From the NCBI RefSeq assembly GCF_018138715.1, contig NZ_JAGSHX010000006.1:7626001-7690000 (forward strand): 64,000 nucleotides of DNA. Reading direction: 5' to 3'. Source of the stretch: Streptomyces asiaticus. Lineage in GTDB: Bacteria; Actinomycetota; Actinomycetes; Streptomycetales; Streptomycetaceae. Positions 13,892 to 59,440 of the stretch are shown here, one piece after another. Every line of letters starts with the position of its first letter. The stretch's first letter is position 1. The position numbers and the translations under genes are program-made. Under the pieces are notes generated by a model. The model worked only from the letters and a program-made list of their open reading frames with translations. It made no database searches and was not told where the DNA came from.

Positions 13892-15102
<1,211 letters not shown>

Positions 15103-32767: not shown

Positions 32768-32780
32768 ACGTCGCACTGCC

Positions 32781-34391: not shown

Positions 34392-35908
34392 CAACACCGT
34401 TGATTTAGCGCTTTGACCTGGCCTTCAAGCCGTCTTCCATCACCGTGACCTCGGTTTCGAGGGTGTAGTGCTGAGCTGTGGCGGGGTGTTGGAGGGAGTT
34501 CTTGCTGTACTTGCTGGTCGGGTTCTTTCGGGTTCGGGCCTTGGCTCGCTGCCGGCGGCGGGCGGGCAGAAGGTTGTCCAGGATGGCGTGACCGATCGTG
34601 CTCACCAGCGTGACCTCGCGCGGGATGATCCCGGCGGCGGTGGTGACCTGGTCGCGGGCTGTTTCCAGGGCGATGGTGAAGCTGATCCGGTCGGGGTCCA
34701 GACCCGGTCGTCCGGCGGTGGCGTCGGTGGTGATCCGCACGAGGGCTTGGTAGACGGTCAGCAGGGCGTACACCTCCTGTTCGACCTCCTGCGGGCGGTG
34801 CGAGCGCAGGATGCGGCCGTCCAGCATCGTGGCCTTGATCGAGAAGTAGGCGGTCTCGGCCTGCCACCTCTCGTGGTAGAGGGTGACCAGCTCACGGGCG
34901 GGGTAGCGGGTGTGGTCGGTGAGGCTGGTGGCCAGGCGCCACTGCTCGCGGCGGACCGTGCCGTCCTGGTAGGTCACGGTGATCCATGCTTCGACGATCC
35001 GCACCGGCAGCTTTCCCATGCCGAAGGTCGACAGGTAGGAGCCGTCAGGCAGCCGCTTGGTGATCAGCGGGATGCGACGGGCGCCGGACCGGCACAGGAA
35101 CTCCGCTCCGGTGGAGCGGAGTTGGAGCAAGAGGGGGTAACCGTCGAAGCCGGTGTCCAGCAACACGAGCATTCCGCGGGTCAACCGGTCGAGCATCTGC
35201 TCGGCGTAGATGGTCTCGCCTGTGGTCTCCGGGCCGAAGGCCGCGGCGGGCACCGCCCGGGTGCCGCACTCGATGAGCGTGAGCAGTCGCAGCAGCGGGT
35301 AGCCGAACTCCACGTCCTCGCCCTTGCGCTTGCGTTTGGTGTGCCGGGCGGCGATCGGTTCGCTGTCGGGAAGGTGCAGGCTGGTGCCGTCGATAGCCAC
35401 CGTCCGCAGGCCCCGCCAGAACGCGCCGGGAGTGTGCGGCCCGGCCACCGGCCCGGCCAGTGTCTCGAACAGCGCCTGGAACGGTGCGGATCCCACCCGG
35501 CGGCGGGCCCGGCACAGCGCCGAGGTACACGGCCGCACCAGGGCCAGAGCATCCAGGCTCGCGACGAGCTTGCCCCACACCGCCCGATAGCTGCACCGCT
35601 CGAACAGGGCCAGCGCCAGGACGAAGTACACCACCACCCGCGAGGGCAGCAGCCTGACCCGCTTCTGGACCGTCCCGGTCTCCTCCAGAACCGCATCGAC
35701 CAGCGCAAAGTCCACCACCTGCGTCAACTCCCCGAGATGTCCCGGCGCGAACCCGCCCGCGGCTACCGCGATCTCACGGGTGATGACAGACTGCTCCTGC
35801 AACGGAACTCCTTGATCAACTCTCTTGGTCGAAAGTTGATCTACCGGGTTCCGTTGCGTCGCTCAACCCCCTTGACGCGTCACCACCAGGTCAAACTCAA
35901 CGGTGTTG
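34392..35908 (-). mobile_element. Complete IS4-family element with 10-bp target duplication
   Basis: 1517 bp. Terminal repeats CAACACCGTTGA (34392-34403) and TCAACGGTGTTG (35897-35908), with TTTGACCTGG further in on both sides. The 10-bp direct repeat CGGCTGGAGT flanks it at 34382-34391 and 35909-35918. A perfect duplication and an intact transposase indicate a recent insertion, the youngest event that can be dated in this nest. Confidence 0.97.
34405..35802 (-). CDS. IS4-family transposase, intact
   Basis: 465 residues. N-terminal domain with RLLPSRVVVYFVLALALFER, then the DDE core: first Asp in TVAIDGTSLHLPDSE, second Asp in LVLLDTGFDGYPLL, and the Y-R-E-K motif YHERWQAETAYFSIK. C-terminal basic tail (LPARRRQRAKARTRKN). 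It is related to the broken transposase at 1464-2858 in domain order but differs in sequence and end repeats. Confidence 0.95.
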   Translation of the reverse strand: MQEQSVITREIAVAAGGFAPGHLGELTQVVDFALVDAVLEETGTVQKRVRLLPSRVVVYFVLALALFERCSYRAVWGKLVASLDALALVRPCTSALCRARRRVGSAPFQALFETLAGPVAGPHTPGAFWRGLRTVAIDGTSLHLPDSEPIAARHTKRKRKGEDVEFGYPLLRLLTLIECGTRAVPAAAFGPETTGETIYAEQMLDRLTRGMLVLLDTGFDGYPLLLQLRSTGAEFLCRSGARRIPLITKRLPDGSYLSTFGMGKLPVRIVEAWITVTYQDGTVRREQWRLATSLTDHTRYPARELVTLYHERWQAETAYFSIKATMLDGRILRSHRPQEVEQEVYALLTVYQALVRITTDATAGRPGLDPDRISFTIALETARDQVTTAAGIIPREVTLVSTIGHAILDNLLPARRRQRAKARTRKNPTSKYSKNSLQHPATAQHYTLETEVTVMEDGLKARSKR

Positions 35909-39289: not shown

Positions 39290-39578
39290 TTGGGGACGTC
39301 GAAGTACTCGCCTGAGTTCCGGGCCGATGCCGTCGCGCTGTACCACGCCAGCTCCGGGTGGGACGTATGCGTCGGTGGCCAAGGACGTGGGCGTCAACCA
39401 CGAGACGCTGCGCACGTGGGTGCGGGACGCCGATCAGGCCGCCCGGCCTGAGGCCGTGGAGGCCTCCGCGATGGAGAAGGAGAACCGTCAGCTGCGGGCG
39501 TGGGTGAAGGAACTCGAGCTCGAGCGGGAGATCCTGCGGAGGGCCGCGAAGTATTTTGCGGCCGAGACCAGCTGGTGA
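39290..39578 (+). pseudogene. IS3 OrfA (HTH protein), frameshifted
   Basis: TTG 39290 with GGAG upstream opens MGTSKYSPEFRADAVALYHA, then one extra base in the GGGTGGG run near 39360 shifts the frame; the true protein continues TYASVAKDVGVNHETLRTWV and KELELEREILRRAAKYFA, the HTH and leucine-zipper of IS3 OrfA. It ends in GTGA overlapping OrfB. The shift would stop normal OrfA and OrfAB synthesis. Confidence 0.85.
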
Positions 39579-40477
39579 GCAGCCGCTTCCAGTTCGTCGA
39601 CGATCACCGTGGCGCCTTCGGCGTCAAGCGGCTGTGCCGGATGCTGCAGGTCTCTCGTTCCGGCTTCTACCGACACCTGGCCGGCGCGCAAGCGCGGGCC
39701 GACCGGGCACGGGCCGATGCCGAGCTCGCTGAGCGCATCACCGAAATCCACCAGGAATCCGACGGCACCTACGGGGCCCCGCGCATCACCGCCGAGCTCC
39801 GGGACGGCGGCGAGCGGATCAATCACCAGCGGGTGGCACGCGTCATGAGGAGGTTCACCATCGTCGGGCTCCACCTGCGCAAGAAGGCCCGCACCACCAT
39901 CCCCGAACCTTCTGCGACGCCGGTGCCGGACCTCCTGCAGCGCGACTTCACCGCGACCACGCCGAACACTCGCTACGTGGGCGACATAACCTACCTGCCG
40001 GTGGGCAATGGCCAATTCCTTTATCTGGCAACGGTGTTGGACCTGTCCTCAAGACGACTGGCGGGCTGGTCGATCGCCGGCCACATGCGCACCGAGCTGG
40101 TCACCGACGCGCTCAAGGCCGCGGCCGCGGCCGCGGCCCGGGGTGCCGACGGCCTGCGCGGGGCGATCTTCCACAGCGACAACGGGTCGCAATACGTCTC
40201 GAAGGAGTTCGCCCAGGTCTGCGGCGAGCTCGGCGTGATCAGATCACGCGGCGCGGTGGGCACGAGCGCGGACAACGCCGCCGCAGAATCGCTGAACGCG
40301 ACCATGAAAAGAGAGATGCTCCAGGGGAGAAAACGGTGGAACGGGGCCCGCGAGGCCCGGCTCGCGGTCTTCCGATGGGCGACTCGCTACAACACCAGAC
40401 GAAGGCACTCCCGCCTCGGCCAGATCAGCCCGATCACTTACGAACAGCGATCAACTACGCTGACCACCGCCGCATAA
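39575..40477 (+). CDS. IS3 OrfB (rve transposase)
   Basis: 300 residues if started at the GTG overlapping the orfA stop. In IS3 elements it is normally made as an OrfAB fusion by -1 frameshifting, and its frame here is indeed -1 to orfA. FGVKRLCRMLQVSRSGFYRH is the HTH-21 region. DDE core: Asp in YVGDITYLPVGNG, Asp in IFHSDNGSQYVSKEF, Glu in NAAAESLNATMKREM. The catalytic frame is intact. Confidence 0.92.
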   Translation: MSSRFQFVDDHRGAFGVKRLCRMLQVSRSGFYRHLAGAQARADRARADAELAERITEIHQESDGTYGAPRITAELRDGGERINHQRVARVMRRFTIVGLHLRKKARTTIPEPSATPVPDLLQRDFTATTPNTRYVGDITYLPVGNGQFLYLATVLDLSSRRLAGWSIAGHMRTELVTDALKAAAAAAARGADGLRGAIFHSDNGSQYVSKEFAQVCGELGVIRSRGAVGTSADNAAAESLNATMKREMLQGRKRWNGAREARLAVFRWATRYNTRRRHSRLGQISPITYEQRSTTLTTAA

Positions 40478-43417: not shown

Positions 43418-44042
43418 CTTGCCGAGAACGTCATCCGTACAGGTCATGCGGCATGTTGGTACTCGTGGAGGATCCCGCCGAGTCGATCGTGTCGTCGTTT
43501 GTCGAGACGGCTGATCTGCTCAGGATCGTCGATCGGCGTCGGTAAGGCGTGCAGCGGTCTGGCGTTCGCGATGCCCTGGTGCGGCCGGTGTGCGTTGTAG
43601 AACTGCTCGAACTCGCGCAGGACGTGGAGCAAGTGTCGGTGGTTCCAGATCAGGGTGCGGTCCAGGAGTTCCCGTCGGCAGGTCTGCACCCACCGTTCCA
43701 TGAGCGAGTTCATCCTCGGCATCTGAACACCGCTGAGCACGACCTCGATCCCCGCATCCGCCAGAATGGCGTCGAGCAGGCCGGGGAACGGTGCAAGATG
43801 GTCTCGGGGCGGATCAGCAGCAGAAGGTGCCGCAGTCTGTCTTTGGGGAGGTGGTGGAGCAGGCCGGCGAGGGTGGCACGGTCGCTGTCGGTGAGGGTCG
43901 GCTTGCCGACCTGACGCTGTAGGACGAGCAGTTGGTGCCGGAGGACGAGGATCTCGATGTCCTTGTCTCGGTCGCTCATCGGCAGGAGGTGTAGGAACGC
44001 CAGGGCGTTGGTCGTGGCGAGGTAGGCCAGGGGCAGCAGCAC
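43418..44042 (-). pseudogene. rve element with internal deletion (relative of 32781-34032)
   Basis: The left end reads CTTGCCGAGAACGTCATCCG. GTG 44042 opens LLPLAYLATTNALAFLHLLP, DIEILVLRHQLLVLQRQVGK and runs to about residue 83 (LIRPETIL). It then jumps, near 43795, to the C-terminal part FPGLLDAILADAGIEVVLSG, MNSLMERWVQTCRRELLDRT and RRHDRLGGILHEYQHAA. About 140 codons with the first two catalytic Asp residues are gone. A non-autonomous derivative. Confidence 0.88.
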
Positions 44043-44129
44043 GACAGATCATGATGCCGCCCCGGCCCTTTGCGGGTGAAGGCACTTGGGCGAATGTCGA
44101 GGAGAACCGAAGATCCGTGATCAGGCTCC

Positions 44130-44660
44130 CGACCTGCGTGGATGATGTATCGGCACCCGCAAACTCCCCCGTCACCGGGTCGACCAGCATCACCCCACCG
44201 ACGATGTCCATCTGCCACAACTGCATCGGCCGATCCCGCTGCCAGCGCTTGTAATCCGACCGCTTCCGGCGCCTGGCCCCCGGCTCCACCAGGCCATGCC
44301 GGACCAGGATCCGATACACCGTCATCCGCGACGGCACCGGCGCCACTGCCCCCGACCAAACTCCAGCACATGAAGGATCCGCCGCGGACCCCACCGAGGA
44401 TGCTTACGCCGCAGCTCGCACACGGCCGCCTCCGCCTCGGCAGAGGCCTGATGCGGACACGACCCCGGCGTACGCGACCGGTCCGCCAGCCCGGCCAGTC
44501 CCGAGACGGCATACCGGGACTTCCAACCGCTGACCGTCTGCCGGGACACACCAAGCGACGCGGCGACTTCCGTCACCGCCGCACCCGCCAGCACAGCCCG
44601 GTATCTCTGCTCGACTACCCACAACTCCACCGGCGCCAATCCCGGCCTCCCCACACACGC
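44130..44660 (-). pseudogene. IS481-family transposase remnant
   Basis: N-terminal two HTH regions: VEQRYRAVLAGAAVTEVAAS, LGVSRQTVSGWKSRYAVSGL, ADRSRTPGSCPHQ and LRRKHPRWGPRRI. After a frameshift near 44340: SRMTVYRILVRHGLVEPGAR and YKRWQRDRPMQLWQMDIVGG (first catalytic Asp). It ends at VDPVTGEFAGAD. The rest of the DDE core is missing. Confidence 0.82.
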
Positions 44661-48602: not shown

Positions 48603-48755
48603 ATCGGGCCCCGTATGAGACGCGCAGCGCGGCCAACGCACTGGCGGACAGCTGGCTCTGAGGAGGCGACGCCCCCCCCGATGACTCCTGGCGTAAGGAT
48701 CACCCGAGACCAATGTCCTAGTGTCCTGCGCCAGTATTTGATCGTTAGTTGTTGC

Positions 48756-49593
48756 GTGACTCCTTCTGCTGCTGGTGCTTCGGTCCCTCGTCGGGGCCCG
48801 AAGCTGGAACCGTTACTGCTCTCCGATGAGGAGAGGGCGGTGTTGCAACGGTGGTCGCGTCGGGCGACGTCGGCTCAGGCGCTGGCCCTGCGGGCTCGGA
48901 TCGTACTGGCGTGTGCGGGCCCGGAGGTGCCGCCGATCGTGGTGGTCGCCCGCGAGTTGCGGGTGGCCGCCGACACGGTCCGCAAGTGGCGGCGCCGGTT
49001 CCTGGCCGAGCGGCTGGACGGCCTGGCCGACGAGCCCCGGCCGGGACGACCGCCCGCCATCGGTGTTGATCGGGTGGAGGCGGTCGTGGTCACCACGCTG
49101 GAGGAGATCCCGAAGAACGCCACGCACTGGTCGCGGAAGTCGATGGCCGAGCACAGCGGCCTGTCGAAATCCACCGTCGGCCGGATCTGGCGGAAGTTCC
49201 AGCTCAAGCCGCACCTCACGAACACCTTCAAGCTGTCCACCGACCCGTTGTTCGTGGAGAAGGTCTACGACGTCGTTGGCCTGTACTTCAACCCGCCCGA
49301 CGGCGCGGTGGTCCTCTCGGTGGATGAGAAGTCCCAGATCCAGGCCCTGGAACGGTCCCAGCCGGTGCTGCTGATCATGCCCGGCATGCCCGAGCGGCGC
49401 ACTCACGACTACGTCCGCAACGGCCTGACCACGCTGTTCGCCGCCTTCGACGTCGCCACCGGCGAGGTCATCAGCTCCCTGCACCGTCGGCACCGGGCAG
49501 CGGAGTTCAAGAAGTTCCTGATCAAGATCGACAAAGAGGTGCCCGCACACCTCCAGATCCACCTCATCTGCGACAACTACGGCACCCATAAGA
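48756..49593 (+). pseudogene. IS630-family transposase, C-terminus missing
   Basis: GTG 48756. LLSDEERAVLQRWSRRATSA starts the two HTH domains; VARELRVAADTVRKWRRRFL and WSRKSMAEHSGLSKSTVGRI follow. First catalytic Asp in VVLSVDEKSQIQALERSQPV, second in HLICDNYGTHK, after which homology ends at 49593. The last 80 or so residues with the catalytic Asp/Glu are replaced by unrelated sequence. Confidence 0.88.
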
Positions 49594-49614
49594 CTGCGGG
49601 TGCCGATAAATCAT

Positions 49615-49773
49615 CCGCGCAGTTCAGGCGGCGTGCTGGTATTGGGGGCGCGGCCGAGGAGGCCGATGGCATCTCGCTGGAGGCGGAGCCTGACGTGGGC
49701 GTAGACGGTGGCGGTGACGCCGGTGTGGGCGTTGGCCGAGGAGGTCCTTGGTGACGACGCGTTCGACGCTGTG
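49615..49773 (-). pseudogene. Tyrosine recombinase (integrase), C-terminal remnant
   Basis: The minus strand reads SVERVVTKDLLG in one frame and AHTGVTATVYAHVRLRLQRD then AIGLLG in the next. LGHAHIGVTAxVYAHVRLRLQRDAI is the end of Streptomyces site-specific integrases; the Y in VYAHV is the catalytic tyrosine. Only this tail survives. It hints that an integrative element once ended here. Confidence 0.6.
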
Positions 49774-50028
49774 CTTGCCGAATACTTCATCCGTGCAGGT
49801 CACGCGGCATGTTTGTATTCGTGGAGGATGCCGCCAAGGCGGTCGTGGCGTCGTATGTCGAGGTTGCTTAACTTGTCCGGATCGTCGATTGGTGAGGGCA
49901 GCGGGTGTAGCGGTCGGGCGTTCGCGATGGAATGTCGGCTGCGCGAGAGCGCCGACTAGAGCGACGAGGCCGACCACCGCCAGCCCGGGTGCAGGCGTCC
50001 GACCAGGGCGGATGACATTCTCGGCAAG
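49774..50028 (-). mobile_element. Short deletion derivative of the CTTGCCG rve element
   Basis: 255 bp with both ends intact: CTTGCCGAATACTTCATCCG at 49774 and the reversed right end CTTGCCGAGAATGTCATCCG at 50028. Inside are only the last codons of the transposase (about 49800-49930) joined to the non-coding 5' leader. It resembles a MITE that the intact transposase at 32807 could move. It truncates the Sua5-type gene. Confidence 0.85.
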
Positions 50029-50295
50029 CGCAAGGTCCGCGTCGATCGTGATCGCGTCGACGATCTCCTGCTCGCGGCTGCCCAGCTCGTGCACCTCACG
50101 GTGCAGCTCGTAGTTGCCGACCATCGCGTGGCGCTTATGCGGGGCGCGCTGCTTGGCGACGAACAACCGCTGTAGTGCTTCCGGCGAGCTCGCGCCCGCC
50201 CCGTAGCCGATGTCGCCGGGGAGAATGACCGCGCCACCGGCTGTGATCGTGTCGAAGACGCGCTTCGCGTCGGCGTTGATGTCGTGCCTGCCCAT
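50029..50295 (-). pseudogene. Sua5/YciO/YrdC-family protein, 5' part
   Basis: ATG 50295 has a perfect AGGAGG. 89 codons read GRHDINADAKRVFDTITAGG, AVILPGDIGYGAGASSPEAL, QRLFVAKQRAPHKRHAMVGN, matching the KRxxxKP-type nucleotide/tRNA-modifying fold (here K--APHKRHAM). Cut at DADLAL by the MITE-like element. Full-length family members are about 200 residues. Housekeeping TsaC is presumably elsewhere. Confidence 0.7.
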
Positions 50296-50396
50296 CCGAG
50301 CCTCCTTGCTCGTTGGGTGGTATGCGTTGCCGTATCCCGGAACGGACGCTGGTCCGTTGCCAGCCGCCGCTTCATTACATCGCTCTGTCCAGGTTG

Positions 50397-50460
50397 TTGA
50401 CTTGGGTGAAAGTAGCATCTATCTTCATGCTACATCGCGGCAAGGATTGCCACGATGTAG
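50397..50460 (+). promoter_or_regulatory. Promoter with nested inverted repeats (catabolic operon)
   Basis: TTGACT (50397-50402), 17 bp, TATCTT (50420-50425): near-consensus. Overlapping the -10 is GTAGCAT-N8-ATGCTAC (50412-50433). Just downstream is a second palindrome: CTACATCG (50430-50437), GGCAA-GGA-TTGCC inside, CGATGTAG (50453-50460). The two share the bases CTAC at 50430-50433. Either could be the site for the IclR protein encoded at 52149, or the second could be an RNA hairpin at the 5' end of the message. Confidence 0.65.
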
Positions 50461-50475
50461 TCATCGGAGGATGTC

Positions 50476-51328
50476 ATGCGTCGAAGCCTTGCGGCTCGAG
50501 CCGCCCTCGTGATCCCGGCACTGCTGGTCGTCGCAGGCAGCGGCGGCAGCGCAACGCTGCGGACACAACTGTCGGGCGGCATCCCCATCGGTGAGATCGG
50601 CTACAAGTCCGTCCTTGACGCGTCGAAGGAGGGCATCCCGGTGCTCGCGGTCGGAGGCGGCGCTCAGGGCCCTTACGGCGGCGACTTCTACGCTCGCGCC
50701 GACAACAACCGGGTCAACGACCTTCGTGACATCAAGAAGTGGGCGTACACCAACCCCGGGTCCTCGATCTACGCGCGGTCGTTCCTGCTCCCCAAAACGG
50801 CGGGACTCCCCACCAAGGCCAAGCGCATCGCCGCCGGCGGAGTCGGCGAGGGTGAGGCCCTACTGGAGGCGGGCAGCGTCGACGTCGCCTGGCTGCCGCC
50901 GTCCCTGGCGAGCCGCAGCAAGGGCAAGTTCACGTTGGTCGTGGAGACGAGCAAGTACATCACTGACTTCCAGCAGAGCGTCATCACCACCAGCCCGGCC
51001 TACGCCAAAAGAGCACCCCGACGTGGTACGGGGCGTCCTCGCCGGCCGGCAGGAGGCAGCACAGTGGATCACCCAGAACCCGGATGCCGCCGCGCGCATC
51101 TACGCCAAGCACGTCGACCTTCCCGTCCCGGCAGCGGTGTCGGTGGTCAAGGGTGCGGTCAAGTCGAACGTCCGGAACGTGGGCTTCAACTCCGCTGCGC
51201 TGAAGCGCGCCACGGAGGCCGCGGTCGTCAGCGGGTTCAAGGGCGACGTGAAGTACTGCGACTTCATCGACACCTCGTACCTGCCCAGCGGTGCCACTGC
51301 CGAACTGCCGACCAAGTGCGGCGCGTGA
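50476..51328 (+). pseudogene. NMT1/SsuA-type ABC substrate-binding protein, damaged
   Basis: GGAGG then ATG 50476. The signal peptide (RRSLAARAALVIPALLVVAG) runs straight into LSGGIPIGEIGYKSVLDASK, so some 60-80 residues of the N-lobe are missing. RDIKKWAYTNPGSSIYARSF, KRIAAGGVGEGEALLEAGSV and DVAWLPPSLASRSKG are typical of taurine/nitrate/NMT1-like binding proteins. Near 51008 one extra A in AAAA shifts the frame; the rest (EHPDVVRGVLAGRQEAAQWI, NPDAAARIYAKHV) is in frame +1 to the stop at 51328. Two lesions argue for true loss. Confidence 0.85.
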
Positions 51329-51386
51329 CAGCCGCACCGGAACCAGGTCTCGCCCCTCCAGCCGCGACGGACACGGAGAACCGATC

Positions 51387-52082
51387 ATGAACACAGATGC
51401 GGACACGACGTCCCGCCCCGCTGCGAGCGCCGCAGCCGCCGGAGCCGCGCACGTCGAGGCGTCGGGCGTCGTGCGGGCCTTCGGGCCGGTACAGGCGCTC
51501 GGACCCGTCGATCTGCGTATAAGAGCAGGTGAGTTCGTGTCGGTCGTGGGCCCGAGCGGCTGCGGAAAGTCGACGCTCCTGGAGATCATCGGGGGTCTTC
51601 AGGCCCCGGACGCGGGCACGGTCGAGGTCGGCGGGGAGACGCTGGCCGGGCCGCGGGAGCGTACCGCGATCGTGTTCCAGGACTCTGCGTGCCTGCCGTG
51701 GCGGACCGTCCTGGACAACGTCGCCTTCCCACTGGAGGTGGCGAAGGTGCCCCGGAAGGAGCGCCGCGCCCGGGCCCAGGAACTCCGGGTCCTCCCGATG
51801 GTCGGCTGGCCCGCCGTCATGCCCGCGGTCGCGGCCGGGCTACGGCTGACCTTCGGGTTCACCTTCCTCGGCCTGATCATCGCTGAGATGTTCGCCGGCT
51901 CCTCGGGGCTCGGCCAGCAGCTCCTGCGCAACGTCGCCCTTGCCCGCATGGAATACATCGCCGAGGAGATCGTCCTGATCGTCGTATTGGCGCTCGTGCC
52001 CTTCCTGCTGCTCACGTGGATCGAGAGGCGCGTCAATGACCGCTTCGGCTCCCGCTCGGCACCCCGTGGAAGCCGCTCATGA
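51387..52082 (+). CDS. Chimeric ORF: ABC ATPase N-terminus fused to permease C-terminus
   Basis: 231 codons in one frame. Residues 1-135 are an SsuB/TauB-type ATPase (ASGVVRAFGPVQALGPVDLR, Walker A GPSGCGKST, Q-loop FQDSACLPW) as far as RKERRARAQELR. Residues 136-231 are the end of an SsuC-type permease (LPMVGWPAVMPAVAAGLRLT, GLIIAEMFAGSSGLGQQLLR, IVLIVVLALVPFLLLTWIER). The ABC signature, Walker B, and the permease's first helices and EAA loop are missing, so one deletion joined the two genes in frame. It cannot work as a normal importer; whether the product is made is unknown. Confidence 0.88.
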   Translation: MNTDADTTSRPAASAAAAGAAHVEASGVVRAFGPVQALGPVDLRIRAGEFVSVVGPSGCGKSTLLEIIGGLQAPDAGTVEVGGETLAGPRERTAIVFQDSACLPWRTVLDNVAFPLEVAKVPRKERRARAQELRVLPMVGWPAVMPAVAAGLRLTFGFTFLGLIIAEMFAGSSGLGQQLLRNVALARMEYIAEEIVLIVVLALVPFLLLTWIERRVNDRFGSRSAPRGSRS

Positions 52083-52148
52083 CCGCCATATCCTCGGGTG
52101 CGCATTGCGTGAGAACGCTACCAATCGATGAAAACGGAGACCGGAACG

Positions 52149-52943
52149 ATGTCTGAAGGCCAGCCCTCGATCCTCGTCATGGAGAAGGCGGTCCGCGTCC
52201 TTGATTGCTTTTCCCCGGGGCAGACCCGGCTGTCGCTGAGCGACATCCGGCGGCTGACGGGCATGCCCAACTCGACGGTCGCCCGCCTGGTCCGCACCCT
52301 TGTCGCCAGTGAACTCCTTCAGCGGACGGGAGACGAGTACTGCGTCGGACTCCGCGTGCTCGGCTGGGCGTCGGCCGCGTCGGCCGGCTCGGACCTGTTG
52401 GTGGCCGCCGAACCAGTGGCCGCGCACCTGCGGGACGTGACCGGCGAGACGGCCGGGCTCTACATTCGGCGCGGCACGACGAGGGTGGCGGTGATCGTCA
52501 AGCTCAGCTCGCGGTCGATCATCTACCGCAGTGACGTCGGCCAGCTCATGCCGATGCACCTGGGAGCGGCCGGCAAGGTGTTCATGGCCCATGACGAGCG
52601 GGTGCTCAACGCGGTTCTCGTCGAGACCGCCGACGAGGCGCCGGGCGAGTCGCGGATCGCGCTGGATCGGCAGCTCGAGTTCGTGCGGGGGCATGGTTGG
52701 CTGCTGACCGAGGAGGAACGCGAGGCAGGCCTCAACTCACTGGCCGCGCCCGTGTTCGACGCGAGCGGCACCATCGTGGCGGCCATCGCGGTCGGCGGCC
52801 CCTCGTCCCGCCTCGACCGAGCGGCCGCCGAGGAATTCGGTCCGCTCGTCGCCGACGCCGCGCGGAGCCTGTCGCGCCGCCTCGGCTATGACGGTGCCCC
52901 GGCCGGGCGGGCGCCGGGCACCACGAGCGAGGCGACGGCGTAA
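52149..52943 (+). CDS. IclR-family transcriptional regulator
   Basis: 264 residues from ATG 52149; an upstream ATG at 52128 has no ribosome site. N-terminal winged [43 protein letters not shown]. The effector domain has [55 protein letters not shown] and [10 protein letters not shown]. IclR proteins sense small acids such as glyoxylate, pyruvate or aromatic intermediates. It stands between the transporter remnant and the dehydratase genes (2-bp gap to the next), so it most likely regulates this operon through the palindromes at 50412-50460. Confidence 0.93.
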
Positions 52944-52945
52944 CG

Positions 52946-54346
52946 ATGACCACCCTGCTGGACAAGATCTGGGACGCCCACGTGGTGCACTGCGGCGCCG
53001 CGGGAAGCAGCGATCTGCTCTACGTCGACTTCCACCTGCTCCACGAAGGCTCCAGCCCGCAGGCGTTCGAGGGCCTGCGCCTGGCCGGACGCACGGTCCG
53101 CCGGCCCGACCTCACACTCGCCACCGAGGACCACGTCGTTCCCACCCGCGGCCTGCTGGGGCAGACCGGTGTGGCAGTGACGATGGTGGAGGCACTGCGG
53201 CGCAATTGCGCGGAGTTCGGAATCCCGCTGCACCGATCGGGCACGGACGGCCAGGGCATCGTGCACGTGATCGGACCCGAGCTCGGCATCACCCAGCCCG
53301 GCCGCATCATCCTGTGCGGCGACAGCCACACGAGTACGCACGGCGCGTTCGGTGCGCTCGCGTTCGGCATCGGCACCAGCCAGGTCGAGCACGTGCTGGC
53401 GACGCAGACTGTCGCGTTCGCCAAGCCTCGTGCCATGGCCGTGACGCTGCACGGCGCGCTGCCGGCCGGCGTCTCGGCGAAGGACGTGGCACTGGCCGTC
53501 ATCGGCCGGATCGGCACCGGGGGCGCGCAAGGCCATGTGATCGAGTACCGCGGACCCGCCGTCGAGGCGATGTCCATGGAGTCGCGGCTGACGCTGTGCA
53601 ACATGTCGATCGAGGCGGGTGCGAAGGCCGGCATGATCGCTCCCGACGACGTGACCGTCGACTACCTCCGCGGCCGGCCGTACGCACCGACGGGGCGCGC
53701 CTGGGACGATGCCGTCGCATCGTGGAAGTCGCTGCGCAGCGACGACGACGCCGAGTTCGACCGCAGCATCGACATCGATGTGACGACCTTGTCGCCGTTC
53801 GTCAGCTGGGGCACGAACCCGAGCCAGGTCGTCGAGCTGAGCGCGGCGGTCCCGGACCCGGCCGATACGCCCGATCCAGACGCACGCCGCGCCGCCGAGC
53901 GGGCTCTGACCTACATGGATCTCTCTCCCGGAACACCGATGCGGGAGATCCCGATCGACGTGGTGTTCCTCGGGTCCTGCACCAACGGCCGCATCGAGGA
54001 CCTCCGGGCCGCCGCGCAGGTCCTCGAGGGCCGCGAGATCGCGCCCGGGGTGCGCATGCTCGTCGTGCCCGGTTCGGCCGCCGTCATGCGCGCCGCCGAG
54101 TCCGAGGGTCTCGACGAGGTGTTCCGCAAGGCCGGGGCAGAGTGGCGCACGGCCGGCTGCTCCTTGTGTGTCGCGATGAACGACGACTCCCTGGCGGCGG
54201 GGGAGCGCTGCGCGTCGACCTCCAACCGCAACTTCGAGGGCCGCCAGGGCCGGGGCGGCCGTACGCACCTGGTCTCACCCACCACCGCGGCCGCAACGGC
54301 GGTGACCGGCCGCCTCACCGCGCCGTCGAACCTGGGAACCCGATGA
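52946..54346 (+). CDS. LeuC-type dehydratase, large subunit (aconitase superfamily)
   Basis: 466 residues, bacterial LeuC length. [11 protein letters not shown] start; [20 protein letters not shown] active-site loop; Fe-S cysteines in [14 protein letters not shown] and [20 protein letters not shown] (CxxC); [20 protein letters not shown] near the end. These enzymes need a [4Fe-4S] cluster and a small subunit to dehydrate and rehydrate 2-hydroxy or 3-hydroxy diacids. It sits beside a lyase and a second dehydratase, not beside leuB or leuA, so leucine synthesis is unlikely. It overlaps its small-subunit gene by ATGA. Confidence 0.9.
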
Positions 54347-54927
54347 AACCGATTACCTCGATCACCGGTCGTGCGGTGGCGATCCGTCGTCCGAACATCG
54401 ACACCGACCAGATCATCGCCGCCCGACACTGCCTGCGGACGACTCGGACGGGCTTCGCCGAGCACCTCTTCGCCGCGTGGCGGGCAGAGCCGGGTTTCCC
54501 GCTGGCCGATCCGGCCCATGCCGGAGCGACGATTCTCCTCGCGGGTGCGGACTTCGGTTCCGGCTCCTCGCGCGAGCATGCCGTCTGGGCACTGCAGGAC
54601 CACGGTTTCGCCGTCGTCATCGCCACTCGCTTCGGTGACATCTTCGCCGACAACGCTGTCCGGTCCGGACTCGTTCCCGCCGTGCTGGCGGACGACGAGG
54701 TAAGCGGCCTGATGGACACCGTCGAGGCCGACCCGGCGTTGCCCGTCACCGTGGACCTCGTGTCGCTGACCGTCCGCGCGGCCGGGATCGAAGCCCCGAT
54801 CCGGATGGACGCCGACACCCGGCAGCGGTTCCTGGACGGGCACGACGGCATCGACGTGACCCTCCGGCACGAGGCGGCCATCCGCGCGTACGAGCTCACG
54901 CACGTCCCCATCGCCAGGGCGTCGTGA
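54343..54927 (+). CDS. LeuD-type dehydratase, small subunit
   Basis: 194 residues. ATG overlaps the large-subunit stop as [24 protein letters not shown] then [13 protein letters not shown] is the LeuD start; [20 protein letters not shown] is the swivelling-domain active-site loop; [15 protein letters not shown] follows. It forms the heterodimer with the protein at 52946. The residues after DTDQII (-AARHCLR-) differ from the usual -P--YLKR- of leucine enzymes, compatible with another substrate. Confidence 0.9.
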
Positions 54928-54951
54928 CTACCAACCAGAGAGGTGACCTCC

Positions 54952-55797
54952 ATGACGACTGCACCTGCCGAACTGCGCAGGCTCTTGTCCGAGCCGGGCA
55001 TGGTCCGCGCGCCCGGTGTCTATGACGGGATCGGTGCCCATCTCGTACGGCGGGCGGGCTTCCCGGTCGCCTATCTGACCGGCGCCGGGGCAGTGGCCGC
55101 CGGCTACGGACTGCCCGACATCGGTCTGGCCACCGCGACGGAGATGGCCGACCGTGCGGAAGTCGTGGTCGAGGCGAGCCGGCTCCCAGTGATCGCGGAC
55201 GCCGACACCGGCTACGGCAACCCGATGCACGTCGTGCGGACGGTGCGGGCCTACGAGCGCGCCGGTGTCGCGGCGATCCAGCTCGAGGACCAGGACTTCC
55301 CGAAGCGCTGCGGGCATTTCACCGACAAGTCCGTCATCAGCGCGGACGACTTCGTCCGCAAGCTCGCCGCCGCCCTCGAAGCCAGGGAGAACGACACCGT
55401 CGTCATCGCCCGCACCGACGCGCGCGGACCGGAGGGACTGGACGAGGCCATCACCCGTGCCCACCGTTACGCGGCCGAGGGCGCCGACATGATCTTCGTC
55501 GAGGCTCCCCAATCGGTGGAGGAGATCGAACGCATCGCCGCCGAGGTCCAGGCCCCGCTGGTGTTCAACGTCGTCCCCGCGGGGCGGACACCCGCCGTCC
55601 CCGATGCGGACCTGGAGAAGCTCGGCTTCCGTATGGCGATCTACCCGGGGGCGCTGCTCCAGCCCGTCACGGCCGCGATGGCCGCCGCGCTGGTCGAGCT
55701 GGGTGGCGAGGATCCCCACCTCGGGGAGGGCCCGCTCGGCATATTCCGTGCGGTCGGGTTCGACGACTGGGCCGCGCTCGGCGAACGCTACCGCTGA
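54952..55797 (+). CDS. Isocitrate lyase/PEP mutase superfamily C-C lyase
   Basis: 281 residues. AGAGAGG lies before ATG 54952. Barrel motifs: RAPGVYDGIGAHLVRRAGFP, GYGLPDIGLATATEMADRAE, the metal-site DADTGYGNP, IQLEDQDFPKRCGH and ARTDARGPEGLDEAI. KRCGH, with catalytic Cys, marks true lyases such as isocitrate, methylisocitrate and 2,3-dimethylmalate lyase rather than PEP mutase. It would cleave a 2-hydroxy diacid to pyruvate (or glyoxylate) plus a carboxylic acid. Its place between two dehydratase pairs suggests it cleaves their product. Exact substrate unknown. Confidence 0.9.
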   Translation: MTTAPAELRRLLSEPGMVRAPGVYDGIGAHLVRRAGFPVAYLTGAGAVAAGYGLPDIGLATATEMADRAEVVVEASRLPVIADADTGYGNPMHVVRTVRAYERAGVAAIQLEDQDFPKRCGHFTDKSVISADDFVRKLAAALEARENDTVVIARTDARGPEGLDEAITRAHRYAAEGADMIFVEAPQSVEEIERIAAEVQAPLVFNVVPAGRTPAVPDADLEKLGFRMAIYPGALLQPVTAAMAAALVELGGEDPHLGEGPLGIFRAVGFDDWAALGERYR

Positions 55798-55824
55798 TCC
55801 GCTGCGACCACCGAAGGAGACCGT

Positions 55825-57072
55825 ATGGGCATGACCATGGTCGAGAAGATTCTGGCCCGCGCCTCGGGCAGACCCGCGGTACAAGCCGGCGACACCGTGG
55901 TCGCCAAGGTCGACATGAACATCTTGATCGACCTCATGTTCACCCAGTGGCCCGATCCGCTGAGCATCGCCGATGCGGAGCGGACGGCCGTCATCCTGGA
56001 CCACGCAGTCCCGGCTCCCAGCGTTGTGGACGCGAACGCGGCGGTACTCGCCCGTGAGTTCGCCGCGCGGTTCGGGATCGAGAGGTTCTTCGACGTCGGC
56101 CGGCACGGCATCTGCCACCAGGTGATCGCCGAGAACGCTCTCGCCCTCCCCGGGCAGGTGCTGACCTGCACGGACTCCCACACCTGCGCCGGCGGCGCCT
56201 ACAACAACGCCGCACGCGGGCTGGGACCCGTCGAGATCATCTCGATCCTGTGCACCGGGGAGACCTGGTACAGCGTGGCGCCGACGATCCGCTATGAGCT
56301 CACCGGCGCGCCCGCTCCCGGGGTCACCGGCAAGGACGTCTTCCTTCACCTCGCCGGGACCTGGGGAGACGCGACGAACCACACGTTGGAGTTCGGTGGG
56401 CCGGGGCTCGCCTCGCTGCCGATGAACGACCGTCGGACCATCGCCACCCAAGGTGCGGAGGTTTCCGCCGACTTCAGCGTCTTCGAGTTCGACGAGCACT
56501 GCGCCGCCTACCTGGCCGAGCACGGGGCCCCGGACTCGTTCACCCCCGCCGCCCCGGACCCGGACGCCGCGTACGTCGCCACCCGCACGATCGACCTCGG
56601 CGCCCTCGTGCCGTACGTCGCCCGCCCGGGCAAGGTCAGCGAGAACGCGCTTCCCATCCCCGAGATCGAGGATCGTGCGGTGCAGCAGTGCTTCATCGGC
56701 TCCTGTGCCAACGGCCAGCTCGAGGACCTGCGCATCGCCGCCGAGATCCTCGGCGGCCGTCAGGTCGCGCGGGACGTCCGGCTGATCGTCACACCCGCCT
56801 CGCAGCAGGTCTACCGGGACGCCGTCCGCCTCGGGTACGTCCAGGCCCTCGCAGATGCCGGGGCCGTGGTCACGAACTCCACGTGCGGCGCCTGCTTCGG
56901 CTACCACATGGGGGTCCTCGGCGCGGGCGAGGTCTGTCTGACCTCCAGCACCCGCAACTTCCGCGGCCGAATGGGCAGTCCGGACGCCGAGATCTACATG
57001 GCCTCCACCGCGACCGTGGCCAGCTCCGCCGTGATCGGACGCATCACCGACCCGAGGAAGGCCCTGGGATGA
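55825..57072 (+). CDS. HacA/DmdA-type dehydratase, large subunit
   Basis: 415 residues, the shorter archaeal-type/HacA form, clearly a different subfamily from the LeuC at 52946. [20 protein letters not shown] opens; [20 protein letters not shown] is the active-site loop; Fe-S cysteines in [14 protein letters not shown] and [19 protein letters not shown] (CxxC); [20 protein letters not shown] ends the barrel. This form includes homoaconitase, methyltransferase-free IPM isomerase and 2,3-dimethylmalate dehydratase (DmdA). Lying beside a KRCGH lyase, a dimethylmalate-type reaction is the closest known parallel. It overlaps its small subunit by ATGA. Confidence 0.9.
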
Positions 57073-57578
57073 GCCACACGATCACCGGCCGGACCTGGGT
57101 GATCGGGGACAGCGTCGACACCGACGCCCTGTACCCCGGTTTCGCGATGCGCCTGCCCGTCCCCGAGGCGGCGACACATGTGCTCTACGACCTGCGCCCC
57201 GGCTGGTCCGCGCAGGTCCGCCCCGGCGACATCCTGGTGGCAGGCCGCAACTTCGGCATCGGCTCGAGCCGTCAGGTGGCGGCGTTGTTGCGCCATCTCG
57301 GCATCACCGCACTCGTCGCCGAGGACTTCAACTCCCTCTTCCACCGCAACGCGATCAACCACGGCCTTCCCGCCGTCACCGTACCCGGCGTCAGCAACCT
57401 GGTCACCGAGGGAGACGTCATCACCCTCGACCTGGAAGCCGGCCTGCTCCGAAATGCAGACACCGAGCTCGCCTTCAGCCCGGTCCCGCCGATGATGCTG
57501 GAGATCCTCGACGCCGGCGGACTGCTTCCCCGCCTCGTCGCCGCCGGCTATCTCGCCGACCCGTCCGGAAAGGGCTGA
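57069..57578 (+). CDS. HacB/DmdB-type dehydratase, small subunit
   Basis: 169 residues from the ATG in the ATGA overlap. [20 protein letters not shown] opens; [20 protein letters not shown] is the active-site loop; [20 protein letters not shown] follows. In homoaconitase and IPM isomerase small subunits a YLRM or YLRT stretch after DTDxI decides the substrate; here -YPGFAMRLP- replaces it, so substrate cannot be predicted from that rule. Two bases separate it from the CoA ligase gene. Confidence 0.9.
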
Positions 57579-57580
57579 CC

Positions 57581-59062
57581 GTGAACCTGGCCATCAACCT
57601 GGTCGCGTCCGCCCGCTCGCAGCCCCGGCACCCGGCGATCAAACTGGACGGCCACGTCCTGGATTACGCCGCGCTGCACGCTTCCGCCGCAGCCGTGGCC
57701 GGTGACTTGCGCGAACGCGGTGTGGAGCCGGGCGACCGGGTCGGCCTGGTGCTGCCGAACGTGCCCGCCTTCCCGATCGTGTTCTACGGTGCGCTGTTCG
57801 CCGGCGCGGTCGTGGTCCCGATGAACCCGCTGCTCAAGACACGCGAAGTCGAGTACTACCTGGGCGACTCGGGCATGAAGGTCGTCTACGGCTGGGACGG
57901 CTCTGGGGACGTCGTGCCCGAGGCGGCCAAGGCCGTGGGGATCACCGGGATCGTCGTCCCGGCGACCGGCCCCACCGAGCTGAGCGGCACCCCGATCGAG
58001 GAGCCGGTCGAGCGCGCGGACAACGACACCGCCGTCATCCTCTACACCTCCGGCACCACCGGGCAGCCCAAGGGCGCGGAGCTCACCCACCACAACCTTT
58101 CCTCCAATGCGGCGACCATGGCCGAGACACTGATCGAACTCGGCCCGGACGACGTGATCATGGGCTGCTTGCCCCTGTTCCACGTCTTCGGTCTCACCTG
58201 TGGGCTCAATGCCGCGGTCCACTCGGGAGTCACGCTGACGCTGATTCCGCGGTTCGATCCGGCCAAGGCGCTGGAGGTGGTGTCCCGTGACCAGGTGACC
58301 GTGTTCGAGGGTGTGCCCACCATGTACGCGGCGATGCTGAACTGCCCCGATGCGGCGACTGCCGATATGTCCTCGCTGCGCACCTGCGTCACCGGGGGCT
58401 CCGCGATGCCCGTGGAGATCTTGCGTAGCTTCGAGTCCCGGTTCGGCTGCGAGGTCTTCGAGGGCTACGGCCTGTCGGAGACCTCGCCGGTCGCGTCGTT
58501 CAACCAGCCCGGCCATGAGCGCAAGGCAGGCACCATCGGCTTCCCGGTACGCGGTTGCGAGATGCGCCTGGTCAACGACGACGGCGAGGACGTCCCGGTC
58601 GGCGAGCCCGGGGAGATCGCCATCCGCGGCGAAAACGTCATGAAGGGCTACTGGAACCGCCCCGAGGCCACCGCCGAAGCGATACCGGACGGTTGGTTCC
58701 GCAGCGGCGACATCGCCACCAAGGACGCGGACGGCTACCACACCATCGTCGACCGCAAGAAGGATCTGATCATCCGCGGCGGCTACAACGTCTACCCCCG
58801 CGAGGTCGAGGAAACCCTCTACCAGCACCCCGCCGTGGCCGAGGCCGCGGTGATCGGGATCAAGCATCCCGATCTCGGTGAGGAGATCGGCGCCGCGGTG
58901 GCCCTCAAACCGGGCGCCGAGGCGGACCCGGAGGAGCTCAAGAACTTCGTCCGGGACCGTCTCGCGGCGTACAAGTACCCCCGTTCGGTCTGGCTTGTCG
59001 ACACCCTCCCGAAGGGATCCACTGGCAAGATCCTCCGCCGCAAGGTTGAACCCGCAGACTGA
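57581..59062 (+). CDS. AMP-forming acyl-CoA synthetase
   Basis: 493 residues, GTG start. P-loop [50 protein letters not shown] (A5), [20 protein letters not shown] (A7 with the Asp), [16 protein letters not shown] (A8) and [13 protein letters not shown] with the C-terminal catalytic Lys. It activates a carboxylate to the acyl-CoA. As the last gene of the operon it may activate the acid released by the lyase (for example propionate or a branched acid) or the entering substrate. A hairpin follows at 59074. Confidence 0.93.
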
Positions 59063-59073
59063 CAGAAGGTGAC

Positions 59074-59111
59074 GGGTTCCTGGAATCCTGGCGGAGGCGG
59101 AGCAGGGACCC
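59074..59111 (+). terminator. Operon-end hairpin after the CoA ligase
   Basis: GGGTTCCTG (59074-59082) pairs with CAGGGACCC (59103-59111) with one G-T wobble; the loop is GC-rich and 20 bases. It lies 12 bp after the ligase stop and marks the likely end of the operon. Confidence 0.55.
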
Positions 59112-59119
59112 GCTGGACT

Positions 59120-59440
59120 TCCCGTGCCAGCTTCACCCCACTCACCCGCTCAAACCACCAGCCCGACCCGCTCCAAGGTCCATAAATCGGCCTCGAACCC
59201 GTGCGCCTGGGCACCCTGCTCCAACGCGGCCCGCACCTGCTCGACCTGGGCGTCATCAAGCTTGGGCGGCCGCCCCGTGGCCGGAGACCGCCGCAGCGCC
59301 GCGGCCCCGCCCTGTTCCCACTGGCGCTTCCACCGCCGCACGCTCTCGGGACGGACCCCCAGCATTCCCGCGATCTGCGCATGGGGACGCCCCTGCTCGA
59401 ACAACTCCACCGCCCGCATACGTCGAGCCTCGGCCAACTG
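59120..59440 (-). pseudogene. IS630-type transposase, N-terminal HTH remnant
   Basis: Reads AEARRMRAVELFEQGRPHAQ, IAGMLGVRPESVRRWKRQWE, QGGAAALRRSPATGRPPKLD, then DLWTLERVGLVV and, after a frame change, VERVSGVKLARE. This is the double-HTH N-terminus of IS630-group proteins (WTL-RV--LI---G). The DDE domain is missing. 59441-59578 shows nothing else. Confidence 0.8.

What the first reader, a model, noticed from the sequence alone, without database searches (positions are those of the whole stretch)
52149..59111. Two different aconitase-type dehydratases around a KRCGH lyase and an acyl-CoA ligase, under IclR control
Seen: leuC/leuD-type pair, isocitrate-lyase-superfamily enzyme with KRCGH, HacA/HacB-type pair and an AMP-forming CoA ligase, packed with ATGA overlaps or gaps of 2-27 bp. 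Known: in nicotinate fermentation a HacAB-type 2,3-dimethylmalate dehydratase and a KRCGH lyase yield propionate and pyruvate; methylcitrate and leucine routes use single dehydratases. Inference: one pair moves a hydroxyl or hydrates an unsaturated diacid, the other prepares the lyase substrate, and the ligase activates the acid released. A pathway using both dehydratase classes in series is not one I know as described. Actual substrate is unknown.
Basis: partly seen in the sequence, partly recalled or inferred. Interest (0 to 1): 0.82.

Follow-up and report, generated by a model that had tools for sequence, protein, structure and literature searches.

The report
Two isomerases feeding one lyase
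A streptomycete-type bacterium carries a small gene set that probably breaks down an unidentified organic acid; it holds two different enzymes of the aconitase kind, and related gene sets contain only one or the other, so they look like alternatives rather than two successive steps.

Summary
In detail: IclR, LeuC/LeuD-type pair, KRCGH lyase, HacA/HacB-type pair and AMP-forming CoA ligase lie head to tail at 52128-59062. The first pair (here LeuC2D2) is not the leucine enzyme: the genome has a second LeuC (66% identical) beside a LeuD, LeuC2 forms its own clade, and the substrate-recognition loop of LeuD2 is rewritten. Obligatory use of both pairs in series is not supported. In the 80 loci kept from a HacA search, 77 have the lyase, 79 HacB, 61 an MmgE/PrpD-like gene and one (Streptomyces canus) LeuC2D2. 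Three Amycolatopsis-family genomes found by LeuD2 have IclR-LeuC2-LeuD2-lyase and no close HacA in the operon or genome. The lyases beside LeuC2D2 (three of four relatives) group within the HacAB-linked lyases. Best reading: two interchangeable hydroxyl-shifting dehydratases for one lyase, with the window and S. canus holding both. The substrate is unknown, most likely an imported substituted malate- or citrate-type acid. The window's importer genes are broken by two deletions; the enzyme genes are intact and under purifying selection.

The parts
52128..52943 (+). IclR-family regulator (P0001); internal ATG at 52149 also possible
   Evidence: PF09339 and PF01614; 45-46% identical to the IclR directly upstream of lyase-HacAB in L087 and L167, 33% to the IclR beside the housekeeping leuC
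52946..54346 (+). LeuC2, large subunit of a LeuC-type dehydratase (P0002)
   Evidence: NF004016 and TIGR00170 above cut-off; own clade 100/100 apart from the genome's other LeuC
54343..54927 (+). LeuD2, small subunit (P0003); substrate-recognition loop [10 protein letters not shown] instead of IIPA[VH][WY]LK
   Evidence: TIGR00171 above cut-off; loop in 4 of 4 LeuD2 examined, in 0 of 9 comparison LeuD
54952..55797 (+). KRCGH lyase of the isocitrate lyase/PEP mutase superfamily (P0004; GTG start at 54943 possible)
   Evidence: PF13714; best solved relatives 2,3-dimethylmalate lyase, CPEP-mutase-like, petal death protein
55825..57072 (+). HacA2, large subunit of a HacA-type dehydratase (P0005)
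   Evidence: NF001614, TIGR01343; relatives lie within 4 kb of the lyase in 77 and of HacB in 79 of 80 loci
57069..57578 (+). HacB2, small subunit (P0006); GSSRQ in place of GSSRE, basic residue in the recognition loop
   Evidence: TIGR02087 above cut-off; column counts in 78 sequences
57581..59062 (+). AMP-forming acyl-CoA ligase (P0007)
   Evidence: PF00501, PF13193; nearest solved: feruloyl-CoA synthetase, malonyl-CoA synthetase, FadD13; close relatives in L023 (cut by the contig end) and L153, none in the 19.9 kb of L154 and L178
50476..52082 (+). remains of an NMT1/SsuA-type ABC importer: binding-protein frame with a piece lost, and an ATPase-permease fusion left by a deletion
   Evidence: alignment to the importer genes of L023: about 146 bp and about 1750 bp missing
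49624..50418 (-). truncated divergent Sua5/YrdC-family gene
   Evidence: PF01300 remnant, below cut-off; near full-length matches in L023, L153, L154, L178

Best explanation
The operon is an acid-catabolic module whose core is an aconitase-class isomerase and an isocitrate-lyase-superfamily lyase. The isomerase moves the hydroxyl of an imported hydroxy-di- or tricarboxylic acid to the neighbouring carbon, by loss and re-addition of water, and the lyase splits the product by retro-aldol cleavage into a 2-oxo acid (glyoxylate or pyruvate, say) and a second carboxylic acid, which the ligase converts to its CoA thioester. The older isomerase of this module is HacAB, in many lineages joined by an MmgE/PrpD-like enzyme. 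A duplicated, re-specialised LeuCD (LeuC2D2) was recruited as a second isomerase for the same lyase lineage and in three genomes read here is the only close one. The window and Streptomyces canus hold both, so here the two pairs most likely act in parallel on isomers or homologues of one substrate class. Shown: gene content, families, lyase kinship, loop changes, exchange of partners between genomes. Inferred: reaction direction, parallel action, ligase role, regulation, order of recruitment. Unknown: the substrate.
For: Lyase with HacAB and without LeuC2D2 is the rule: of the 80 loci kept of 181 found with HacA, 77 have the lyase, 79 HacB, 61 the MmgE/PrpD-like gene (each within 4 kb) and 1 has LeuC2D2. 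LeuC2D2 with lyase and without HacAB: 3 of 3 genomes found by LeuD2 (L153, L154, L178); whole-genome HacA matches there are at best 38% and 40% in two and none at 1e-30 in the third. Same kinds of regulator and importer on both sides: IclR 45-46% in L087 and L167, binding protein 44-46% in L024 and L167, the MFS of L153 77% over a partial match in L024. LeuD2 loop rewritten, a region that sets substrate preference in IPMI small subunits (PMC7308503, abstract and passages). dN/dS against S. canus is 0.08-0.25 for the seven genes, 0.17 for HacA and HacB.
Against: In the window and S. canus HacA and HacB are about as constrained as the rest, so they are not simply being lost; a serial role there cannot be excluded. 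Two of the three genomes without close HacAB hold other HacA-class proteins (2 at 37-38% in G273, 4 at 37-40% in G281) that might take its part; only G417 has none at 1e-30. L154 has a different lyase (49%), so LeuC2D2 is not tied to one lyase. If HacAB does the whole hydroxyl shift, the MmgE/PrpD-like gene in 61 of 80 loci is unexplained unless HacAB can only rehydrate, and then LeuC2D2 might replace that gene instead. No activity of any of these proteins is known to me. The junction match in L153 to the HacB end fits loss of HacAB there, but also insertion of HacAB in the Streptomyces line.
Confidence: 0.5

Rival explanations
1. Series, in methylcitrate-cycle style: LeuC2D2 dehydrates the hydroxy acid to the unsaturated acid, standing in for the MmgE/PrpD-like dehydratase of the related loci, and HacAB hydrates it to the isomer that the lyase cleaves.
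For: Where LeuC2D2 occurs with HacAB (window, L023) no MmgE/PrpD-like gene is in the locus (L023 ends inside the ligase), and the window's genome has no match to it at 1e-10 (S. canus has two at 32-33%). Precedents: AcnD plus PrpF replace PrpD (PMC5690661, abstract and outline); in fungi an aconitase makes homoaconitate and homoaconitase only interconverts homoaconitate and homoisocitrate (PMC3556520, abstract). Distant HacA-class proteins in G273 and G281 (37-40%) could replace HacAB there.
Against: LeuC2D2 sits with the lyase where close HacAB is missing from the genome, in G417 even at 1e-30. HacAB plus lyase also occurs with neither LeuC2D2 nor the MmgE/PrpD-like gene in view (for example L167, L031, L061).
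Confidence: 0.25
2. LeuC2D2 and HacAB serve two separate substrates that merely share regulation and ligase, and only one of them feeds the lyase in this genome.
For: Each pair is separately conserved; the ligase is absent from the L154 and L178 stretches.
Against: Each pair is found alone with closely related lyases, so that both feed the lyase is the simpler reading.
Confidence: 0.15
3. Ordinary spare leucine or isoleucine biosynthesis enzymes (isopropylmalate or citramalate isomerase) beside a methylcitrate-type lyase, of no particular pathway.
For: LeuC2 and LeuD2 pass the NCBIfam leuC and leuD cut-offs.
Against: Another LeuC with an adjacent LeuD is in the genome; separate clade; loop replaced; IclR-LeuC2-LeuD2-lyase in 5 of 5 loci read.
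Confidence: 0.05

Closest known systems
Dimethylmalate branch of Eubacterium barkeri nicotinate fermentation (DmdAB plus 2,3-dimethylmalate lyase; recalled)
   Same: HacAB-class dehydratase together with a KRCGH lyase; the best PDB match of the lyase is 2,3-dimethylmalate lyase 3fa3
   Different: actinobacteria, a second LeuCD-type pair, ligase, ABC or MFS importer; nicotinate genes were not searched for; substrate untested
2-Methylcitrate cycle (PrpD or AcnD/PrpF, aconitase, PrpB)
   Same: dehydratase, hydratase, KRCGH lyase; many related loci carry an MmgE/PrpD-like gene (61 of 80)
   Different: no citrate synthase among the seven genes; lyase scores 253 against the prpB cut-off 354; the MmgE/PrpD-like protein of L024 scores 30 against the PrpD cut-off 950; heterodimeric HacAB in place of AcnA/AcnB
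Fungal homocitrate isomerisation by aconitase plus homoaconitase (PMC3556520, abstract)
   Same: two aconitase-family enzymes on one hydroxyl shift
   Different: biosynthetic, dehydrogenase instead of lyase; here relatives keep only one of the two pairs
LeuCD isopropylmalate isomerase
   Same: family models, GSSRE in LeuD2
   Different: recognition loop, operon partners, separate clade, second copy present
Itaconate/methylsuccinate cluster with MmgE/PrpD isomerase (PMC12290011, passages)
   Same: MmgE/PrpD member next to diacid genes
   Different: CoA transferase, hydratase and citramalyl-CoA lyase; no aconitase-class pair named there

Membership tests
LeuCD isopropylmalate isomerase (leucine biosynthesis) | passes leuC/leuD family models | tested here: met
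LeuCD isopropylmalate isomerase (leucine biosynthesis) | groups with housekeeping LeuC and keeps the LeuD recognition loop | tested here: not met
   separate 11-row clade 100/100; loop differs from all 9 comparison LeuD
LeuCD isopropylmalate isomerase (leucine biosynthesis) | isopropylmalate isomerase activity | not testable with these tools
   no assay
HacAB/DmdAB dehydratase | two-subunit aconitase-class enzyme above subfamily cut-offs | tested here: met
   NF001614, TIGR01343, TIGR02087 met; TIGR02086 (396 of 410) and the equivalogs HacA_Meth, HacB_Meth not
HacAB/DmdAB dehydratase | GSSRE substrate motif in the small subunit (motif: PMC7308503, passages) | tested here: not met
   GSSRP in 75, GSSRQ in 2 (window, L023), GSSRE in 1 (L112) of 78; so not filed as homoaconitase or dimethylmaleate hydratase
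2-methylcitrate cycle | lyase passes the prpB model | tested here: not met
   253 bits against cut-off 354
2-methylcitrate cycle | PrpD or AcnD plus citrate synthase in the operon | tested here: not met
   none of the seven genes is one; LeuC2 on the AcnD model 66 of 1420; the PrpD-like query has no match in the genome at 1e-10; the genome was not searched for citrate synthase
2,3-dimethylmalate lyase | sequence kinship to the solved enzyme | tested here: inconclusive
   best PDB match but level with CPEP-mutase-like 4iqd; in the tree 3fa3 pairs with oxaloacetate acetylhydrolase, outside the clade of the window lyase
2,3-dimethylmalate lyase | cleavage of (2R,3S)-2,3-dimethylmalate | not testable with these tools
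   no assay

The most novel reading that the evidence does not exclude
An undescribed actinobacterial route for a substituted malate or citrate in which one lyase lineage is served by interchangeable dehydration systems (HacAB alone, HacAB with an MmgE/PrpD-like enzyme, or a re-specialised LeuCD), with this window caught in the dual state between the old isomerase and its replacement.
Probability: 0.45. Interest if true: 0.66.

Novelty: new variant of a known kind. Interest (0 to 1): 0.5.

Why it matters
The HacAB-lyase cluster occurs, patchily, in Streptomycetaceae, Pseudonocardiaceae, Nocardiaceae, Catenulisporaceae and mycobacteria, and no paper in the listings I saw describes it (searches; open-licence PMC texts only, best rows shown). 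If the two pairs are alternative isomerases for one lyase, this is a traceable case of one aconitase-class enzyme replacing another inside a pathway, and of a LeuCD copy that left leucine synthesis. It also warns that automatic names such as 3-isopropylmalate dehydratase and methylisocitrate lyase are unproven for many relatives.

Tried and rejected
Rejected: that the first pair is the leucine enzyme (second LeuC with LeuD in the genome, separate clade, loop). Rejected as necessary: serial use of both pairs. Considered and not settled: methylcitrate-like, citramalate, alkylmalate, benzylmalate and dimethylmalate substrates; nothing in the flanks or importers fixes one. The large frames of window 1-48500 (read by eye, no family search) gave esterase-like, sugar-importer-like and many transposase-like frames and no acid pathway that I recognised. 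Plasmid relatives of HacA showed other partnerships (HMG-CoA lyase and CoA transferase in Peribacillus and Haloferax; lyase plus alcohol dehydrogenase in Roseomonas at 40%; lyase-HacA-HacB in Ancylobacter at 53%) and did not identify the substrate. A riboflavin-breakdown paper (PMC12746152, abstract and passages) was checked: no aconitase is mentioned. No structure was predicted. The frequency of LeuD2 within the window's genus was not obtained (request did not complete).
Full report
1. What is there. The window is G000:C6:7626001-7690000 of an 11.88 Mb genome. Its family holds genomes whose matches have the coordinates of Streptacidiphilus and Actinacidiphila loci, so it is a streptomycete (inferred). 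The lyase has KRCGH and its nearest solved relatives are 2,3-dimethylmalate lyase 3fa3, CPEP-mutase-like 4iqd and petal death protein 1zlp; it fails the prpB cut-off. The ligase is nearest to feruloyl-CoA synthetase, malonyl-CoA synthetase and FadD13, a broad set that does not name a substrate.

2. The first pair is not the leucine enzyme. The genome holds a second LeuC at C6:2472891-2474279, 66% identical, followed by a LeuD (53%) and with an IclR divergent to it. In the protein database the window LeuC has seven cluster entries at 87-99% (the 99% one bears no source and is probably the window's own or its nearest kin) and then a drop to 70% (best 120 listed). In a tree of 45 rows these, with L023, L153 and L154, form one clade of 11 rows (100/100), while the genome's other LeuC sits with the second S. 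canus copy. The small subunit reads [10 protein letters not shown] in 4 of 4 LeuD2 examined (window, L023, L153, L154; L178 was not in that call); of 9 comparison LeuD, 8 read IIPA[VH][WY]LK and one IIPVRFLTR. This is the region that decides substrate preference in IPMI small subunits (PMC7308503, abstract and passages). The change puts Arg and His where the leucine enzymes have Val or His and Tyr or Trp; that the substrate is more polar is my inference.

3. HacAB belongs to a lyase cluster of its own. A scan of GTDB genomes with HacA gave 181 confirmed loci, of which the best 80 were kept. By tblastn (E 1e-20, at least 30% of the query) 79 of 80 have HacB, 77 the lyase, 61 an MmgE/PrpD-like gene, all within 4 kb of HacA, and 1 has LeuC2D2, namely L023 of Streptomyces canus. 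The L024 MmgE/PrpD-like protein (476 aa) has PF03972 and PF19305 and scores 30 against a cut-off of 950 on the 2-methylcitrate dehydratase model. Some of the 19 loci without that gene are short contigs, and only one query was used. Regulator genes differ: GntR-type 28, AsnC-like 13, IclR 16 (one query) within 4 kb, plus the window-type IclR in L023 and L087. The cluster is patchy: HacA at 1e-60 in 14 of 200 family genomes, own included and none other of the own genus listed with a match; at 1e-150 in 3 of 62 Pseudonocardia-genus genomes. L167 and L087 have IclR (46% and 45% to the window's), lyase, HacA and HacB with importer genes in the locus; L167 has no MmgE/PrpD-like match in its 15 kb. 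The window's IclR is closer to these than to the IclR beside the housekeeping leuC (33%), so the regulator seems to belong to the lyase module.

4. LeuC2D2 without HacAB. LeuC2 was sought in 62 genomes of the genus of Pseudonocardia kujensis (56 matched at 1e-190, best 67%, so none has it). LeuD2 was sought in 19 genomes of the genus of Amycolatopsis acididurans (2 hits) and in 390 of its family (3 hits, including those 2; 8 candidates scored per genome). The three loci read IclR (84-87%), LeuC2 (87-90%), LeuD2 (79-90%) and a lyase (L153 92%, L178 89%, L154 49%); HacAB is absent from the three 19.9-kb stretches, and the ligase is present only in L153. Whole-genome searches with HacA gave 2 matches at 37-38% in G273, 4 at 37-40% in G281, and none at 1e-30 in G417 (G417 did answer for LeuD2). 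A database entry from Streptomyces sp. NPDC056663 has LeuC2 (90%) and lyase (91%) with equal contig length 49059 and no HacA of that contig among the 120 listed; this is indirect. So of five loci read (window, L023, L153, L154, L178), 5 have IclR-LeuC2-LeuD2-lyase, 3 the ligase, 2 HacAB. L023 was found through HacA, so the 2 is not an unbiased count.

5. One lyase lineage, two partners. The lyases of window, L023 and L153 fall inside the HacAB-linked lyases, next to Pseudonocardia kujensis and Actinomycetospora (5 rows, 100/99). In a second tree the lyases of window, L023, L153 and L178 lie in one supported group (19 rows, 99/98) that also holds the Pseudonocardia alni lyase (84%), whose contig length 330683 equals that of a P. 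alni HacA at 87%. The partners of most other rows of that group are unknown and its inner forks are weak. Whether P. alni also has LeuC2 was not searched; it is not among the LeuC2 entries, which are clusters at 90%. L154 is on a long branch and its place is unsure. Importers are shared too: the binding protein of L023 has 44-46% relatives in L024 and L167, and the MFS of L153 a 77% partial match at the edge of L024. This favours one substrate class served by exchangeable isomerases.

6. History at the junction. In L153 the lyase-ligase gap aligns to the end of S. canus HacB and its spacer over 31 columns, 27 identical (score 40; 0 of 2000 single-base shuffles reach it). This fits deletion of HacAB in L153. 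But the matching part starts just where HacB of window and L023 departs from the tails of the other HacB listed (45 shown, two of them cut), which fits insertion of HacAB into a lyase-ligase gap. The congruent kinship of HacA and lyase (both nearest Pseudonocardia types) speaks for an old union. I leave this open.

7. Are the enzymes in use? Against S. canus dN/dS is 0.13 IclR, 0.12 LeuC2, 0.11 LeuD2, 0.08 lyase, 0.17 HacA, 0.17 HacB, 0.25 ligase (226 codons only); against L153 0.13-0.19 for the five shared genes. The importer is not intact: compared with L023 the window lacks about 146 bp in the binding protein and about 1750 bp from ATPase to second permease, leaving a fused frame. The divergent Sua5/YrdC-type gene is also truncated. 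Thus this genome may no longer import the substrate by that route, while the enzymes remain constrained.

8. Chemistry (inference). HacB2 has Lys or Arg in 76 of 78 at the loop position that aligns with the Arg of YLRT in the solved homoaconitase small subunit 2pkp (alignment, counts; the role of that Arg is recalled), and GSSRP or GSSRQ in 77 of 78 in place of GSSRE. The basic residue would suit a substrate with an extra acidic group; the loss of Glu is unexplained. A lyase of this superfamily splits a hydroxy acid into a 2-oxo acid and a carboxylate (recalled), so a 3-substituted malate would give glyoxylate plus a substituted acetate for the ligase, and a 2-substituted one pyruvate or a homologue. 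Two aconitase-family enzymes in series have precedent (PMC3556520) and aconitase-class AcnD with PrpF replaces PrpD (PMC5690661), both read as abstract and outline; hence the series rival keeps a quarter of my belief.

9. Verdict. Real operon, correctly read; LeuC2D2 is a specialised paralogue; serial use is not required by the comparison; alternative isomerases for one lyase is the better reading; substrate unknown.

Noticed in passing
window 50476-52082; L023 2741-6264: Importer of the NMT1/SsuA type is broken in the window by two deletions but open-framed in S. canus, while the downstream enzymes are conserved.
   Followed up: yes
window 49624-50418; L023 1840-2628; L153 12749-13504; L154 6382-7140; L178 12503-13270: A divergent Sua5/YrdC-family gene lies near the IclR gene in all five LeuC2 loci read (truncated in the window); its role in an acid-catabolic operon is unexplained.
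   Followed up: partly
L154 10188-11033: IclR, LeuC2 and LeuD2 are 87-90% alike to the window but the lyase only 49%: the lyase was exchanged or diverged fast while its neighbours did not.
   Followed up: partly
61 of the 80 loci L023-L102: MmgE/PrpD-like gene beside lyase-HacA-HacB in many mycobacteria, nocardiae and streptomycetes; a metallo-beta-lactamase-fold gene lies within 4 kb of HacA in 17 of 80.
   Followed up: partly
window 57069-57578 and 77 HacB relatives: The GSSRE motif of aconitase-class small subunits is GSSRP (75 of 78) or GSSRQ (2 of 78) in this HacB group.
   Followed up: partly
window 13913-15031, 31594-33907, 34405-35802, 39500-40477, 43444-44394, 48615-49754, 59150-59437: Many frames that look like transposases or pieces of them surround the region (by eye), suggesting an unstable chromosome part.
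   Followed up: no
L109 7784-13684; L111 5832-9838: Other HacAB-type pairs sit with hydroxymethylglutaryl-CoA-lyase-type and CoA-transferase genes in Peribacillus and Haloferax plasmids, another partnership that I could not place.
   Followed up: no
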